Below, one piece after another: positions 33,964 to 40,129 of a stretch of 45,553 nucleotides of DNA. A program made the position numbers and the translations under genes. The DNA is from Muribaculaceae bacterium Isolate-104 (HZI) (GTDB lineage: Bacteria; Bacteroidota; Bacteroidia; Bacteroidales; Muribaculaceae). The DNA lies in assembly GCA_003762715.1 (NCBI GenBank), contig RIBJ01000063.1, positions 1-45,553 on the forward strand. The letters are read 5' to 3'. The first letter of the stretch is position 1, and each line of letters starts with the position of its first letter. The notes beneath the pieces are model-generated. The model saw nothing but the letters and a program-made list of their open reading frames with translations. It did not search any database and was not told where the DNA came from.

Positions 33964-35298
33964 TCAGTTGTTGATTTTCAGGCTCATGCCGTTGAGGCGG
34001 CGGTACAGGTCGAGGGCGTAGACATCGGTCATGCCGCTTACATGGTCTATCACCGCCTGTATCTTGCCGTACAGATCCGGAGCGTTGACTTCGTACTGCT
34101 GCGGCACTTTGCTCAGAAGCAGCCGCGAATAGTTCAGCGCCGGATAGCGCACCGCGTGGATGAGTTTTTCCATAAGGAATGTTATGATGCTTGTACCGGC
34201 AAGCTCAATGTCAACAACATCGGGGGCGCGGTATATTTTGTCCCATGACAGGTCGGCGCATCTGCGGTAGCCTTCTCTTGCGGTGGGGCGGATGTGGTCT
34301 ATGAGGCAGCCGGAGAACTCGCCGGCGAGTATGGTTTTCTCATTGTCTACGAAGGCGTCAGCGCATTCCTGCACGAGTACGCCTATCACGCATGAACGCA
34401 GATATGCTATTTTTTCGTTGGGGTCGTCAAGCCTGCTCATTGTGGCGCGCAGACGGTCAATGCGCTGGCTGTCGAAAAATCCGAGCAGGAGCTCTATTAC
34501 GCGGTCGCTCTCTATTATGCCGAGTTTGTGCGCGTCTTCAATGTCCATGACCTCGTAGCATATATCGTCGGCGGCTTCGACAAGATACACAAGCGGGTGT
34601 CTGGCGTATTTCATGTACGGGCTGTCGAGGCGTTTGATACCCAGCGCTGTAGCCACTTTTTCAAAGCTATCTTTTTCTGAGGCGAAGAAGCCGAATTTGT
34701 TTTTTTCGGCGGCGAGAGAGCTTTCGTAGGGGTATTTTACAATGGAGGCGAGGGTGGAGTAGGTCATGGCGAATCCTCCCGGGCGCCTGCCGTTGAACTG
34801 GTGTGTGAGGAGGCGGAAAGCGTTTGCGTTGCCGTCAAAGTGCACAAGGTCAGACCATTGTTCCGAAGAGAGGCTTCCCTGCAGCTCCCGCCCGGCGCCT
34901 TCGCTGAAGAATGTGGAGATGGCTTTTTCTCCGCTGTGACCGAAAGGCGGGTTGCCGAGGTCGTGGGCAAGGCATCCGGCGGCTACAATCTCGCCCAGCG
35001 CGTCAAGTTTGTGCGCCCATGGTTCAGTTTTGTGCCGCTCCTTCAGCACAAGCGAAGCCTCGTTGGCAAGCGAGCGTCCTACACAGGCTACTTCGATGCT
35101 GTGGGTCAGTCTGTTGTGTACAAATATGCTTCCCGGCAGGGGGAATACCTGAGTTTTGTTTTGCAGCCGCCGGAAAGGCGAGGAGAATACCAGTCGGTCG
35201 TAGTCGCGTGTAAAATCCGAGCGTTGTCCTTTGCGGTTGTCGCGGTACTCCTCAAGCCCGAAACGGGTGTCGCATATAAGTCTGTTCCATTCCATCAT
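33964..35298 (-). CDS. dgt: Deoxyguanosinetriphosphate triphosphohydrolase family protein
   Basis: A 444-aa HD-domain dNTP triphosphohydrolase that splits dNTPs into nucleosides and triphosphate. Metal-site motifs are HNRLTHSIEVA (about 61-71) and AHDLGNPPFGHSGE (about 110-123), with the second aspartate in YLVEAADDICYEVMD. The N-terminal DYDRLVFSSPFRRLQNKTQV segment is typical. Enzymes of this group also serve in nucleotide-depletion antiviral systems, but this copy looks like the housekeeping form. It is convergent with the esterase with no bases between the stop codons. A terminator separates it from the AAA+ gene upstream. Confidence 0.93.
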   Translation of the reverse strand: MMEWNRLICDTRFGLEEYRDNRKGQRSDFTRDYDRLVFSSPFRRLQNKTQVFPLPGSIFVHNRLTHSIEVACVGRSLANEASLVLKERHKTEPWAHKLDALGEIVAAGCLAHDLGNPPFGHSGEKAISTFFSEGAGRELQGSLSSEQWSDLVHFDGNANAFRLLTHQFNGRRPGGFAMTYSTLASIVKYPYESSLAAEKNKFGFFASEKDSFEKVATALGIKRLDSPYMKYARHPLVYLVEAADDICYEVMDIEDAHKLGIIESDRVIELLLGFFDSQRIDRLRATMSRLDDPNEKIAYLRSCVIGVLVQECADAFVDNEKTILAGEFSGCLIDHIRPTAREGYRRCADLSWDKIYRAPDVVDIELAGTSIITFLMEKLIHAVRYPALNYSRLLLSKVPQQYEVNAPDLYGKIQAVIDHVSGMTDVYALDLYRRLNGMSLKINN

Positions 35299-35416: not shown

Positions 35417-37117
35417 TCAGAATCCCATTTTAGGGCGATTGTTCTGAGATATCCTCTCATGCTGGCAGGTTGTAATTATCTCTTGAATGTCGGTGGTGTC
35501 TTTGACGGAAAGGATGGCTTTGACGGTGTGTTTGCGTACAATGTTTTCAATTTCACCGCCGGAAAGGTCGAACCTGGTGGCAAGAGTGCGGGCGTCAGGC
35601 TCAGCGAGAGCGGGAAGCATTGTCTGCCATATTTTAGCCCGCGACTCAAGAGTGGGTTTGTCGAAACGAATCTTGTAAAGAAAGCGGCGCTCGAAAGCCT
35701 TGTCAAGATTGGTGGTGAGGTTTGTGGTTGCAATCATAATGCCTTCGAGTGTTTCCATTTCCTGAAGTATTATGTTCTGGATGGAGTTTTCCATTTTGTC
35801 AACGGCGCGGGCTGCCCCTTCCATTCTGACTCCCAACACGGCATCAGCCTCATTGAAAAGCAGTATCGGCGCGAGTTTCGAGTTTTTGCAGATGCTGCGG
35901 TAACGGTCAAAGAGGGTTTTGATGTTTTTTTCGCTTTCGCCCACCCAGCAGCTTTTAATCTTGTCGACATCGACACGCATGATGTCGCGACCGGTCTGCC
36001 GCGCAATCTGATAGACGGTCTCTGTCTTGCCTGTGCCGGGAGCTCCGTAGAAGATGCAGCAGAACCCCGGGCGCATGCCGGCGGAGCGGAGACGGGTCTG
36101 CACTTCATTGAACCGGCTCTCTGAAAGGATAGAAGACAGCTCGGTTATCTGGTCGCGTTCGGAAGCATTGTATATCAGGCTTTTCTCAGCAAGGGTGTCG
36201 GCTTTGATGAGCCCTTTGTCGGATTTTCCGACATTATTCAGGTTCAGCTCACAAAGTAGCTCTTCTTTCGCCATGTCTGTGAGTTTGAAGGCATCCGAAC
36301 GGGCCATTCCATCCTCATTGACGTTTTCAATGAGCTTATACCTAAAGAGAGGTAGAGAGCGGTTGCGAAAACCGCTTTTTATATAGCTTGGAATTTTTTC
36401 ATTGTCGTATATGTCATCAATATTGTGAAACATGATATGGTCGTCGCTGTTCTCAACGTATAGGTGAGCCATGAATATAAACAGCAATAACATCTCATTA
36501 TCAAGATTATAGTTGCCCAGGCGTTTGGCAAACTCTGTGTCGTGGATTTCATGGAGCAACTCCATGGTCTGTCGCATCAGCGATTCGTTTGTCAGCTCGT
36601 CATCGTCTTTTTCGTTCATCAGTTGGTCAAACCGGTCGAAGAAGGCTTGGGTATCAGGAACCGGCTCCGTGACATGGACATAGGGCTGGTTTTTGCGAAG
36701 AGCGTCGAGTACCTCGCCCGGCACCCGGTAGCTTAACGAGTTCCGGCTACGCGAAGCCCGGATATAGTGATTGGATTCAAGGACATCTATATCACCTGAC
36801 AGCCGCAGTATTCTTGTTGTGCGACATCCGGCATATTTTGCAATTTCTGAAATCATGATGCGGCTGTCTTCGCTGCGGTCAACGAATATTGAAAGCAGCA
36901 CAACCTGCATTGGCGTGAGGTTAAGCTTGCGTGCGGCGTATTTTATGTGTGTCGAAGCCGTGTCGAAAAAATCACTGTCAAGATTAGAATCTTCGGCAAG
37001 CTCAACGATGTGCTCGAAGCATTCCAGAATGCTTTTTTGGGGTTTGGCATTCCTTGCAACGTTCTTCTGTTTCGATACGTCAGCGGTATTTGCTTTCTGA
37101 AGTCCTGATTCTCTCAT
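35417..37117 (-). CDS. AAA+ ATPase with long N-terminal region and altered Walker B motif
   Basis: A 566-aa protein. Residues 1-310 are helical, with a winged-helix-like stretch near 70-130, and are not recognised otherwise. Residues about 320-550 are a classic AAA+ module: Walker A GAPGTGKT (358-365), a pore-like WVGESEKN (391-398), Walker B ILLFNEADA (418-426), sensor 1 ATTN (463-466) and RR arginine fingers (477-478). The usual Walker B Asp is Asn422, while the catalytic Glu423 remains. This could slow ATP hydrolysis or reflect a known variant of this Bacteroidales group. It follows prfH by 75 bases on the same strand, with its own possible -7 element, and ends at a strong terminator. A remodelling or unfolding role is inferred only. 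Confidence 0.85.
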   Translation of the reverse strand: MRESGLQKANTADVSKQKNVARNAKPQKSILECFEHIVELAEDSNLDSDFFDTASTHIKYAARKLNLTPMQVVLLSIFVDRSEDSRIMISEIAKYAGCRTTRILRLSGDIDVLESNHYIRASRSRNSLSYRVPGEVLDALRKNQPYVHVTEPVPDTQAFFDRFDQLMNEKDDDELTNESLMRQTMELLHEIHDTEFAKRLGNYNLDNEMLLLFIFMAHLYVENSDDHIMFHNIDDIYDNEKIPSYIKSGFRNRSLPLFRYKLIENVNEDGMARSDAFKLTDMAKEELLCELNLNNVGKSDKGLIKADTLAEKSLIYNASERDQITELSSILSESRFNEVQTRLRSAGMRPGFCCIFYGAPGTGKTETVYQIARQTGRDIMRVDVDKIKSCWVGESEKNIKTLFDRYRSICKNSKLAPILLFNEADAVLGVRMEGAARAVDKMENSIQNIILQEMETLEGIMIATTNLTTNLDKAFERRFLYKIRFDKPTLESRAKIWQTMLPALAEPDARTLATRFDLSGGEIENIVRKHTVKAILSVKDTTDIQEIITTCQHERISQNNRPKMGF

Positions 37118-37192: not shown

Positions 37193-37798
37193 TTACAATG
37201 GACCCGAAAATTTTTTGACGGGATTGCCACGTTTGAGACTGTCGTGGCTGCTCCACCGGCGCGATTGCGAATCGGCAATGGCTTTGTTGTTAAGTAGGCG
37301 TAATTTCAATAGTAGTCTTTCGCGGGCAAGTGTTTTGTTTTGCAACTGTGAGCGTTCTTCAGAGCATTTTACCGACAGACCGGTAGGTGTATGGGTTGCA
37401 CGCACCGCTGTCTCAACCTTGTTGACGTTCTGACCGCCTTTGCCGCCGGAGCGACATGTTTCGTAAGCAATGTCAGATTCTTCAATCTTAGGCAGTTTCA
37501 CTTCGTCAAAGAAGCTGATGCCGACAAACCAGTTGCTGCGCCTGTGAGTCGGTCGAAACGGGTTTCTGGTAGACCGCCAGAGAATAGTGCCCTGCCAGTC
37601 TTTTACAATAGGCGGTGAAAACGCTTCGTCGGAGGCGAAAGTCATTGACATAAAGCATCCGCCTTCTTGGTTGTGCGGCTCACAATCTGCAAGTTGCAGA
37701 TTAGGGATTGCTTTGAGCAGTTCATGTGCCACGAGCGTAACGGCTCTGGCACATTCCACCGGACCACGCCCGGCTGTTATCTGTATGTAGTGCTTCAT
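37193..37798 (-). CDS. prfH: Release-factor homologue PrfH
   Basis: A 201-aa class I release factor relative. It retains the peptidyl-tRNA hydrolysis domain with GGQ (121-123, in [11 protein letters not shown]) but lacks the stop-codon-reading domain 2 of RF1 and RF2. PrfH paired with RtcB2 has been shown elsewhere to free ribosomes whose 16S rRNA is cleaved in the decoding centre, after which RtcB2 reseals the rRNA. A distinct N-terminal half (1-100, starting [13 protein letters not shown]) is typical of PrfH. The C-terminal basic tail is present. Its ATG overlaps the rtcB2 stop by 4 bases (ATGA), so the two are translationally coupled. Confidence 0.93.
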
Positions 37799-38997
37799 AA
37801 TTTTCCGTTGTCTTTGATGTTGAGTCGGGGTTTTATCATAGCGATGACTTCGACTGTCGGTCGGATAAGTTCGAGAATCTCCCCGGTGGGTTTGTAAGCC
37901 ATAGGCGATTCATCAAGAGTACTTGCGCAGACAGATGACGAATAGATGCCGGTCATAGCGCTTTCAAATTCACTCATCGATATTTGCTTTTTTGCCTGGG
38001 TGCGGCTCATGATGCGTCCGGCGCCATGTGGAGCGGTGTTGAGCCACTTCTCATTACCTTTTCCGATGCAGATTGCAATGCCGTCACGCATATTGAACGG
38101 TATTGCCACCTTTCGCCCCTCGGACGCGTCAATCGCTCCTTTGCGCAACATCGGCACGTTGTCTGCTACTGATATGTAATTGTGGGTGGTAAATAGCGAT
38201 TCCGTGCATTTGGCTTTACACAGTTTTTTGAGAATAGCGAATATGCGGTCGCGGATAATCTGATGATTATAAAGGGCGTATGCCTGCGCGATAGTCATAT
38301 CCGAGAGATAGCCGCGTAAAGAATCTCCCCAAAGATAGCCTATGTATTTGGCTCGTTTGGGATTTTGCGCTATATTGCGCCAATGGTTTGCTGTTTTGAC
38401 ACCGAGATTGCGCGACCCGCAGTGAATGGTCAGCCAGCCTTCTCCGGTTTCGGCATCCTCTCCATACTCAATGAAATGATTGCCTCCGCCGAGTGTGCCG
38501 ATACTTTTGTAAAATAAGCCTTCCTGAAGTTTGATACGGCGGCAGAAGTCGGTTATGAATCGGGCGTCTATGCGCGGAGCCTCATTGATTAGGTCGGGAG
38601 CGGCGGAGCGAGCCTTCTGATATTGTGAATTTAGAAAGCGGAACAACTCTTTTTCATTGAGCGAATTTTTTTGGCAAACCTCCATGCCTGTAGGTATAGC
38701 CTCTCTGATGCGGTGGTCGAGCAGAGGAAAGTCTGCCGGATTGACAGCGCACGAAAGACGGTGCATAGAAATGGTGCAGCCTATGTCAACGCCTACATGG
38801 TCGGGATTGACATACATTCCAATCGGATAGGCTGTGCCTACATTGCACGAATTTCCGGCGTGGACATCGGGCATCTGCACGATTGGCACTCCCTCCATTG
38901 CGGGGTGGTCGCATTGCGCTGTGATCCAATCAAGAGCGGGCTGCTCTATGTTATCGGTGAAAATTTCAGCCGACGTTGTTTTTCCTGTAATTATCAT
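37795..38997 (-). CDS. rtcB2: RNA ligase RtcB2 (PrfH-associated RtcB)
   Basis: Joins a 2',3'-cyclic phosphate or 3'-phosphate RNA end to a 5'-OH end using GTP and manganese. The 400-aa protein has the metal and active-site motifs MPDVHAGNS (44-48 core), DIGC (C74), GGGNHF (170-175) and IHCGSR (H192). The guanylated histidine is about H324 in [11 protein letters not shown]. It is shorter than typical archaeal RtcB, as RtcB2 proteins are. With prfH directly after it, its target is probably 16S rRNA cut by a ribotoxin. The ATG at 38997 is used; the open frame extends 42 bases more without similarity. It is divergent from a WYL regulator, with an inverted repeat between them. Confidence 0.92.
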
Positions 38998-39031
38998 ATA
39001 GTTCTGTTTTTGTCGCAAAGTTGAAAAGCAT

Positions 39032-39052
39032 GTGCGCAACTGATTTGCGCAC
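39032..39052. promoter_or_regulatory. Perfect inverted repeat between rtcB2 and the WYL gene, probable operator
   Basis: GTGCGCAA (39032-39039), 5 bases, then TTGCGCAC (39045-39052): an exact dyad in the 97-base divergent gap. It overlaps the -33 TTTG (39044-39047) of the WYL promoter. It also lies where the -33 of an rtcB2 promoter would be, given a near-consensus reverse -7 (CAACTTTG, complement of 39016-39023). A dimeric regulator bound here could act on both genes. Confidence 0.65.
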
Positions 39053-39076
39053 CGCCGGAAAAAATTATTATTTTTG
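39044..39076 (+). promoter_or_regulatory. Promoter of the WYL regulator gene
   Basis: TTTG (39044-39047), 21 bases, then TATTTTTG (39069-39076), close to consensus, 18 bases before the ATG. The -33 element lies within the inverted repeat, which suggests autoregulation. Confidence 0.6.
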
Positions 39077-39094
39077 TAAAAAAAATATCAGATT

Positions 39095-40129
39095 ATGCCA
39101 CTCAATCGCGCCACTCTTATACGAATATCGACCATTGACAAGTGTCTTCAGAACCATTATCGCCGGTGGACTATCAACGACCTGATAGATGCCTGTACCG
39201 ATGCGCTGGCGGAATTTGAGGGCAGGAGCAATCCGGTGAGCCGCCGCACGTTTCAAAACGACCTCGCTTTGATGCGCAGCGACCGCTTGGGGTATAATGC
39301 TCCGATAGTGGTGCGCGAAAACAAATACTATGAGTACGAAGACCCCGATTTCAGCATCACACATCTCCCGCTCAATGATGAAGGGCTTGATGCCCTCAAT
39401 TCGGCTCTTGACATATTGCGACAGCTACAGGGGTTTCCGCAGTTGGCGCAATCTATCGACACCATAAGCAAGCTCAACGAGCAGATTTCACGGCACACTG
39501 GCACATCGGCTCCGGCAATGGATATGGAGCATGTTGCCGGATATAAAGGAGCAAAATTTATAGGCGACATTTACGACGCGGTGCGTAAACAGCAGACTAT
39601 CATTATCGAATACCAGTCGTTCAAGGCTCGACATCCGGACTCATTGGCTGTGTATCCGTATTTGCTCAAGGAGTACCGCAACCGGTGGTTTTTAATAGGA
39701 GAGAAAGCCTCCAATCGCGTACCGCAGGTAAATATCTTCGCGCTCGACCGCATACAGTCGGTTGCGATTGACAAAGAGCATCCCTTCAAGAAATGCGTTG
39801 CATTTGACCCTGAACACTTCTTTGACGACACAGTCGGAGTAACTAAAGGAATCCATGATAAAGCCCGGCGTGTAGTTATTAAAATCGACCGCCAACAGGC
39901 TCCGTATGTAGAGTCAAAGCCATTTCATAAGTCGCAGAAAGTGGAGCAACGCTTCCGGGACGGCTCAATACAGCTCTCGCTCAAGGTGGTTATAAACAAC
40001 GAGCTTGAGCGACTTATTCTCGGCTACGGCGGTCACGCCGAAGTCATTGCACCGCCTGAGTTTCGGGAACGTGTAGCCGAAAGTGTTCGCATCGCCGCCC
40101 GTCATTACAATTTTAAATCCGAGGAGTAG
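39095..40129 (+). CDS. WYL-domain transcriptional regulator
   Basis: A 344-aa regulator. The N-terminal winged helix (about 8-75, with NPVSRRTFQNDLALM as the likely recognition region) is followed by a WYL domain (about 155-250) and a C-terminal WCX-like dimerisation region (about 260-340). The WYL triad position reads W-F-L in RNRWFLIGEK. WYL domains often sense nucleic acid or nucleotides, and such regulators control repair and antiviral genes in many bacteria. Divergence from rtcB2-prfH and the shared dyad make that operon its likely target. The AT-richer region of unknown genes begins just after it. Confidence 0.92.
   Translation: MPLNRATLIRISTIDKCLQNHYRRWTINDLIDACTDALAEFEGRSNPVSRRTFQNDLALMRSDRLGYNAPIVVRENKYYEYEDPDFSITHLPLNDEGLDALNSALDILRQLQGFPQLAQSIDTISKLNEQISRHTGTSAPAMDMEHVAGYKGAKFIGDIYDAVRKQQTIIIEYQSFKARHPDSLAVYPYLLKEYRNRWFLIGEKASNRVPQVNIFALDRIQSVAIDKEHPFKKCVAFDPEHFFDDTVGVTKGIHDKARRVVIKIDRQQAPYVESKPFHKSQKVEQRFRDGSIQLSLKVVINNELERLILGYGGHAEVIAPPEFRERVAESVRIAARHYNFKSEE

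What the first reader, a model, noticed from the sequence alone, without database searches (positions are those of the whole stretch)
37193..40129. RtcB2-PrfH ribosome-repair pair under a divergent WYL regulator with a perfect dyad between them
Seen: rtcB2 and prfH overlap by 4 bases. A WYL regulator starts 98 bases away on the other strand. An exact 8-bp inverted repeat (39032-39052) covers the -33 element of the WYL promoter and the expected -33 of rtcB2. Known: PrfH-RtcB2 rescues and repairs ribosomes cut in the 16S decoding centre, and WYL regulators often respond to nucleic acid signals in repair and antiviral loci. Inference: this is an inducible ribosome-damage response in which the regulator may sense RNA or DNA ends or nucleotides produced by a ribotoxin or phage.
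Basis: partly seen in the sequence, partly recalled or inferred. Interest (0 to 1): 0.7.

Follow-up and report, generated by a model that had tools for sequence, protein, structure and literature searches.

The report
Shared switch for bacterial RNA-repair genes
A gut bacterium carries a ribosome-repair gene pair beside a regulator gene, and a mirror-image DNA signal between them recurs in front of RNA-repair genes in many relatives, which suggests that one kind of regulator controls RNA repair across the phylum Bacteroidota.

Summary
rtcB and prfH overlap by 4 bases; a divergent WYL-WCX regulator starts 97 bases away; the exact dyad GTGCGCAA-N5-TTGCGCAC lies between. In same-family genomes the dyad is kept at 26 of 28 testable loci and an adjacent WYL at 22 of 29. 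Genome-wide, 45 of 54 exact dyads in 198 genomes sit at promoters of this WYL family, RtcB ligases, a partner AAA ATPase or one unknown protein; one serves a second RtcB operon of the same genome. Distant relatives of the WYL (41-48% identical) across Bacteroidota often carry the dyad at their own promoters and before RtcB, TROVE/Ro60, RlaP and kinase-like genes. Geometry differs: at targets the dyad sits 9-10 nt before TAnnTTTG; at the close regulators' own promoters it overlaps a canonically spaced -33. The best fold match is DriD, an ssDNA-triggered activator. I infer a DriD-like activator of an RNA-repair regulon that limits its own expression. Corrections: the dyad is not at -33 spacing for rtcB; this RtcB fails NCBI's RtcB2 model; canonical rtcB-prfH pairs elsewhere lack the dyad (0 of 27). 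Binding, activation and ligand are untested.

The parts
37193..37798 (-). prfH, ribosome-rescue release factor (201 aa; GGQ motif visible in the sequence)
   Evidence: TIGR03072 185 bits, cut-off 166.65; nearest solved chains are release factor H 9mor and 7sa4
37795..38997 (-). rtcB, RNA ligase paired with prfH (400 aa), divergent from NCBI's RtcB2 model
   Evidence: PF01139 197.5 bits; TIGR03073 75.3 bits, cut-off 271.8
35417..37117 (-). AAA ATPase (566 aa), 75 nt downstream of prfH on the same strand; likely operon partner
   Evidence: PF00004 79.8 bits; follows prfH in 13 of 29 window-type loci, some copies incomplete, and lies directly across the dyad from WYL in L115-L117, where rtcB-prfH is not in between
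39016..39023 (-). -7-like element CAACTTTG of the rtcB promoter
   Evidence: gap of 13 nt from the dyad's nTTG, 23 of 26 family loci with at most 1 mismatch
39032..39052 (.). operator dyad GTGCGCAA-CTGAT-TTGCGCAC
   Evidence: exact; conserved in family and phylum
39044..39047 (+). -33 element TTTG of the WYL promoter, inside the dyad
39069..39076 (+). -7 element TATTTTTG of the WYL promoter
39095..40129 (+). WYL-WCX transcription factor (344 aa), predicted N-terminal DNA-binding domain, DriD-like
   Evidence: PF13280 and PF25583; model pLDDT 79, pTM 0.56; Foldseek best hit 8tp8 DriD, E 9.1e-15, TM-score 0.47 over the whole chain

Best explanation
The WYL protein regulates an RNA-repair regulon. 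It binds the TGCGCA-N7-TGCGCA dyad, probably as a dimer. On target promoters (rtcB-prfH, with the AAA ATPase behind them, and the second RtcB operon) the dyad takes the place of the -33 element at a fixed distance from TAnnTTTG; there the liganded protein probably helps sigma-RNA polymerase, as DriD and PafBC do. On its own promoter the dyad overlaps a canonical -33, so binding there probably limits its own expression. The signal is probably a single-stranded nucleic acid made when RNA or ribosomes are cut; PrfH then frees the stalled ribosome and RtcB reseals the RNA. Shown by computation: conservation, regulon content, promoter phasing, fold resemblance. Inferred: binding, activation, ligand and the repair step in this host.
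For: Of 29 fetched window-type loci in the family, 22 have the divergent WYL (L065 cut by a contig end, L069 beside broken rtcB-prfH) and 26 of 28 testable have the dyad. Exact dyads occur in 30 of 31 genomes with the close WYL against 10 of 167 others, 5 of which carry a 40-42% WYL. Genome-wide, 45 of 54 exact sites lie at WYL, RtcB, AAA or P297 promoters (control pattern in 1 of 198 genomes). In 80 phylum-wide loci, 28 of 32 dyads outside the WYL promoter lie directly upstream of RNA-repair genes (3.2% expected). Target gap of 9 nt in 20 of 21 close cases, 9 or 10 nt in 24 and 11 of 41 distant ones; WYL gap of 16 nt in 12 of 12 close cases. Best fold hit DriD. In G182 and G092 an intact WYL lies away from a dyad-bearing rtcB-prfH whose own WYL is lost or broken, consistent with action in trans.
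Against: No binding or expression data. [quoted passage not shown] johnsoniae (PMC7366714, passage), so a missing -33 is weak evidence in distant species. 27 of 65 distant WYL promoters lack the dyad within 250 bases, the others are mixed in geometry (gaps 15/16 and 8/9), and 21 of 65 distant loci, Bacteroides members among them and some on short contigs, show no RNA-repair gene. L043 and L062 have rtcB-prfH without dyad or adjacent WYL. G020 and G165 have a dyad before RtcBb but no WYL found at the threshold. The tree-based test of dyad against RtcB presence is not significant, with little power. The whole-chain TM-score to DriD is low (0.47).
Confidence: 0.62

Rival explanations
1. The WYL protein is a repressor at all its sites, relieved by a nucleic-acid ligand, as reported for WYL proteins of phage-defence systems.
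For: The dyad overlaps the -33 region at both promoters of the window; WYL proteins are described as repressors of phage defence in a passage of PMC11888443; BrxR and CapW are lower-ranked fold hits.
Against: Fixed 9-10 nt phasing to TAnnTTTG at targets, unlike the spacing at the close regulators' own promoters, with no TTTG at -33 spacing on the rtcB side of the window; the best fold matches are the activators DriD and PafBC.
Confidence: 0.28
2. The dyad is bound by another regulator, for example the second WYL (WYLb), and the window WYL is only a fellow target.
For: WYLb lies beside RtcBb in several genomes.
Against: Exact dyads follow the window-type WYL across 198 genomes; dyads lie in the WYL family's own promoters across the phylum; by eye the N-terminal ~90 residues are the best conserved part of the protein.
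Confidence: 0.07
3. The conserved dyad is mere conserved promoter sequence of related genomes without regulatory meaning.
For: Close homologues share intergenic sequence.
Against: The dyad recurs before unrelated genes (RtcB, TROVE, RlaP, AAA) in distant families with flanks diverged.
Confidence: 0.03

Closest known systems
DriD (Caulobacter crescentus WYL activator; 8tp8, 9pfq)
   Same: wHTH-WYL-WCX; palindromic site; sites overlap -35 at a constant distance from -10 with poor -35 matches (PMC12340889 preprint, passages); best fold hit
   Different: The DriD regulon is DNA-damage response; here the targets are RNA-repair genes; ligand unknown here
PafBC and SiwR (mycobacterial WYL activators)
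   Same: Domain layout; action through a motif near -26 instead of a -35 (PMC11804915 and PMC10693628, passages)
   Different: PafBC is a heterodimer with DNA-damage targets and another motif
RtcR (regulator of rtcBA / rsr-yrlBA-rtcBA in Proteobacteria)
   Same: Divergent regulator of RtcB and Ro60 genes; [quoted passage not shown]
   Different: CARF plus sigma-54 activator AAA domains; only WYL and WCX found here
RtcB2-PrfH operon of E. coli
   Same: Release factor plus RNA ligase as neighbours; protects against colicin E3 (PMC9223846, listing and passages)
   Different: Window RtcB fails TIGR03073; that paper's text holds neither 'WYL' nor 'regulator'; canonical pairs in the phylum lack the dyad (0 of 27)

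Membership tests
PrfH (TIGR03072) | score above the curated equivalog cut-off | tested here: met
   185 against 166.65 bits
PrfH (TIGR03072) | rtcB immediately upstream, overlapping or close | tested here: met
   4-base overlap; the feature itself from PMC1586002, passages
RtcB superfamily (PF01139) | score above cut-off | tested here: met
   197.5 against 27 bits
RtcB2 (NCBI TIGR03073) | score above cut-off | tested here: not met
   75.3 against 271.8 bits
DriD/PafBC-type WYL activators | wHTH + WYL + WCX | tested here: met
   Pfam WYL and WCX; no Pfam HTH call, but the model has an N-terminal helix-strand domain and DriD is the best fold hit
DriD/PafBC-type WYL activators | site overlapping the -35/-33 region at constant distance from -10/-7 | tested here: met
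   from sequence; no transcription start was mapped
DriD/PafBC-type WYL activators | ssDNA binding in the WYL domain and activation | not testable with these tools
   needs biochemistry
RtcR | CARF and sigma-54 activator AAA domains | tested here: not met
   only WYL and WCX found

The most novel reading that the evidence does not exclude
Bacteroidota use one WYL-family activator, bound to a conserved TnCGCA-N7-TGCGnA dyad that replaces the -33 element, as a phylum-wide RNA-damage response controlling RtcB ligases, PrfH, Ro60/TROVE, RlaP nucleotidyltransferases and kinase-like proteins; its WYL domain senses broken RNA directly, a functional counterpart of RtcR.
Probability: 0.4. Interest if true: 0.85.

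Novelty: new variant of a known kind. Interest (0 to 1): 0.7.

Why it matters
RtcR is the studied regulator of RNA repair in Proteobacteria; the papers I could search do not describe how Bacteroidota switch RNA repair on. A WYL regulator with a defined operator and promoter grammar would make this testable, give a route to the signal for ribosome or RNA damage, name new candidate repair genes (the AAA ATPase, the P297 family), and extend WYL sensing from DNA damage and phage defence to RNA damage.

Tried and rejected
Considered and rejected: chance dyad; the dyad as the rtcB -33 (spacing wrong); PrfH as the defining partner. For the last, 29 PrfH loci from 395 phylum genomes were first read in 3.4-3.6-kb pieces (a dyad in 2 of 29, about 1 kb downstream of prfH), which barely reach the rtcB promoter, so I fetched up to 10 kb each: RtcB was found in 27 of 29, and 0 of 27 have a dyad before it. 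PADLOC and NCBIfam point to an IetA-like ATPase, below the NCBIfam cut-off; the AAA fold search gave only generic AAA hits. The sign test of dyad against RtcB on the WYL tree was not significant. P297 proteins: no Pfam or PHROGs family. Literature searches for WYL with RtcB, PrfH, TROVE, RlaP or Bacteroides listed no paper on such a regulon (two searches listed 12 of 29 and 10 of 34 papers; judged by titles, abstract starts and the passages cited). Burroughs and Aravind 2016 and Tian et al. 2022 are not held and were not read; the former may mention WYL genes near RNA-repair operons, since a later paper cites it where WYL domains are named.

Rows dropped or limits: 2 of the 31 over-cut-off PrfH places (G149:C48, G125:C21, contig ends) were not fetched. 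L039 and L040 hold the canonical type and were left out of the window-type counts. A2 holds 51 of these 80 loci plus the window protein. Several RtcBb loci were fetched because they held a dyad, so unbiased RtcBb counts rest on PrfH-fetched loci (13 of 15); G117 (fetched for its dyad) and the partial G093, G132 and G145 are outside both. Genome lists and the region table were typed by hand from earlier calls.

Full report
Observation. The minus-strand pair rtcB (37795-38997) and prfH (37193-37798) overlaps by 4 bases, and a WYL gene (39095-40129) runs the other way, 97 bases from the rtcB start codon. The exact dyad GTGCGCAA-CTGAT-TTGCGCAC lies at 39032-39052 and is the only match in the window even with 3 mismatches allowed, where 0.37 are expected. 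prfH passes the NCBI model; the RtcB is a clear PF01139 member but far below the RtcB2 model TIGR03073. The regulator has WYL and WCX domains. Of 15 close named relatives, 7 carry Muribaculaceae titles (among them Paramuribaculum intestinale), 5 'Bacteroides sp.' MAG, 2 Porphyromonadaceae and 1 Bacteroidales, so the host is probably a member of the Muribaculaceae (inference).

Conservation in the family. PrfH above the curated cut-off occurs in 31 of 198 same-family genomes. I fetched 29 of those 31 places plus two partial ones. Two of these 31 regions hold canonical-type pairs with no WYL and no dyad found (L039, L040; L040 is a short contig). Of the 29 window-type loci, 22 have the WYL gene next door (in L065 it runs off the contig end; in L069 rtcB and prfH are broken), one has a broken WYL (L052), one is split between contigs (L047 and L174), and five show none (L041, L043, L059 at a contig end, L061, L062). 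TGCGCA-N7-TGCGCA lies before rtcB (before WYL in L069) in 26 of 28 testable loci; the two without it (L043, L062) also lack an adjacent WYL. L041, L059 and L061 keep the dyad without an adjacent WYL, and their genomes carry a close WYL on another contig. In G182 and G092 the dyad-bearing rtcB-prfH has lost or broken its WYL while an intact WYL sits elsewhere beside a broken rtcB, which suggests action in trans.

The regulon. The own genome has one other RtcB gene, on contig C65. Its start lies 62 bases from the start of the same kind of dyad, and it is followed by a DUF6847 protein, a second WYL (WYLb) and an ADP-ribosylglycohydrolase. In PrfH-fetched loci this second RtcB (RtcBb, about 35% identical to the first) has TGCGCA-N7-TGCGCA upstream in 13 of 15 cases. 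Among 8 RtcBb orthologues from genomes without the close WYL, fetched without regard to dyads, 5 keep one of 12/14 or better; among 8 more distant ones (46-63% identical) none reaches 10/14. A genome-wide scan for TGCGCAAN5TTGCGCA over 198 genomes found 54 distinct sites; 45 lie at promoters of WYL, RtcB, RtcBb, the AAA ATPase or a 297-residue unknown protein (P297); 9 are unassigned, 7 of them inside reading frames of 100 codons or more. The control pattern occurred in 1 of 198 genomes. Exact dyads are present in 30 of 31 genomes with the close WYL and 10 of 167 others, of which G017, G034, G117, G146 and G180 carry a 40-42% identical WYL. In L115-L117 the AAA ATPase sits directly across the dyad from WYL, and it follows prfH in 13 of 29 window-type loci, so the ATPase at 35417-37117 probably belongs to the system.

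Phylum-wide. T[GA]CGCA-N7-TGCG[TC]A lies within 250 bases upstream of WYL in 12 of 15 close and 38 of 65 distant loci, against 0 of 80 for each of two palindrome controls. RtcB is in 13 of 15 and 36 of 65 loci. Recurrent neighbours by Pfam, one representative each, are TROVE (Ro60), RlaP (two families), Band_7, an AAA_33 kinase-like protein and Thg1, besides RtcB. Of 90 dyads, 86 lie 130 bases inside to 250 bases upstream of the called start of WYL or of an RtcB, TROVE, RlaP, AAA or AAA_33 gene; of the 32 outside the WYL promoter 28 do, with 3.2% expected in these loci. Against this: 21 of 65 distant loci, a Bacteroides clade among them, show no RNA-repair gene, and the tree-based test of dyad against RtcB is not significant, with few informative pairs. 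Canonical rtcB-prfH pairs elsewhere in the phylum have no dyad before rtcB in 27 of 27 loci where RtcB was found (29 fetched).

Promoter grammar. The Bacteroides consensus is TAnnTTTG at -7 and TTTG at about -33 (PMC7366714, passage). In family loci with the dyad, TTTG inside the dyad is followed by TAnnTTTG 19-21 nt on, on the WYL side, in 24 of 26 with at most 1 mismatch, while the rtcB side has the -7-like element at 13 nt in 23 of 26. In the named loci the gap from the dyad end to TAnnTTTG, at most 1 mismatch, is 9 in 20 of 21 close targets and 9 or 10 in 24 and 11 of 41 distant targets, but 16 in 12 of 12 close WYL promoters, without mismatch; distant WYL promoters (44 counted) are mixed. 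So the dyad's TTG is not the rtcB -33. A fixed phase without -33 fits an activator; overlap with a good -33 fits self-limitation. The same passage says that the -33 could not be identified in F. johnsoniae, which weakens the point for distant species.

Fold and mechanism. The WYL model (pLDDT 79, pTM 0.56, linker 90-148 poor) matches DriD best (8tp8, E 9.1e-15, TM-score 0.47 over the whole chain), then PafBC, BrxR and CapW. DriD is described as an ssDNA-triggered activator whose sites overlap poor -35 elements at constant distance from -10 (preprint PMC12340889, passages); PafBC and SiwR act near -26 (passages). R197 before W198 is invariant in A1 and A2; in SiwR conserved WYL arginines are needed for activation; that R197 corresponds to them is my reading, not a test. 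By analogy the ligand here is a single-stranded nucleic acid, perhaps broken RNA, as RtcR senses cyclic-phosphate tRNA fragments (PMC7790460, passages). Ligand, binding and activation are inference.

Novelty. The parts are known kinds. A WYL regulator with an RNA-repair regulon and this operator was not found in my searches, but two key papers are not held, one of which may have noted WYL neighbours. PMC6514570 (one section read) lists TPR, nucleotidyltransferase and two further accessory genes around PrfH-RtcB, but no WYL and no AAA ATPase. I rate the finding a new variant of a known kind.

Noticed in passing
L111:6223-6636 (own genome G000:C11:14222-14608): 137-aa protein about 50% identical to the WYL DNA-binding half, without WYL/WCX, with a near-dyad upstream, beside ORFs that look ParA- and PcfJ-like by eye; 17 such N-half-only rows appear. 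A possible competitor of the regulator on a mobile element.
   Followed up: partly
L114, L119, L186, L192, L195, L228: P297 family: about 297-aa proteins of unknown function under or beside the same dyad, mostly divergent to a 40-45% identical WYL.
   Followed up: partly
L109:7158-10997 (own genome C65): Second operon: dyad, RtcBb, DUF6847, WYLb, ADP-ribosylglycohydrolase.
   Followed up: partly
L061/L069 (G182) and L052/L141 (G092): Paired loci in which rtcB-prfH survives at one place and the WYL at another, the other parts being broken or lost.
   Followed up: partly
L329:3127 and L330:6879: Dyad about 1 kb downstream of a canonical prfH in two genomes of one genus; the gene there was not examined.
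   Followed up: no
window 33964-35298: dGTP triphosphohydrolase gene next to the AAA ATPase; link to the regulon not examined.
   Followed up: no
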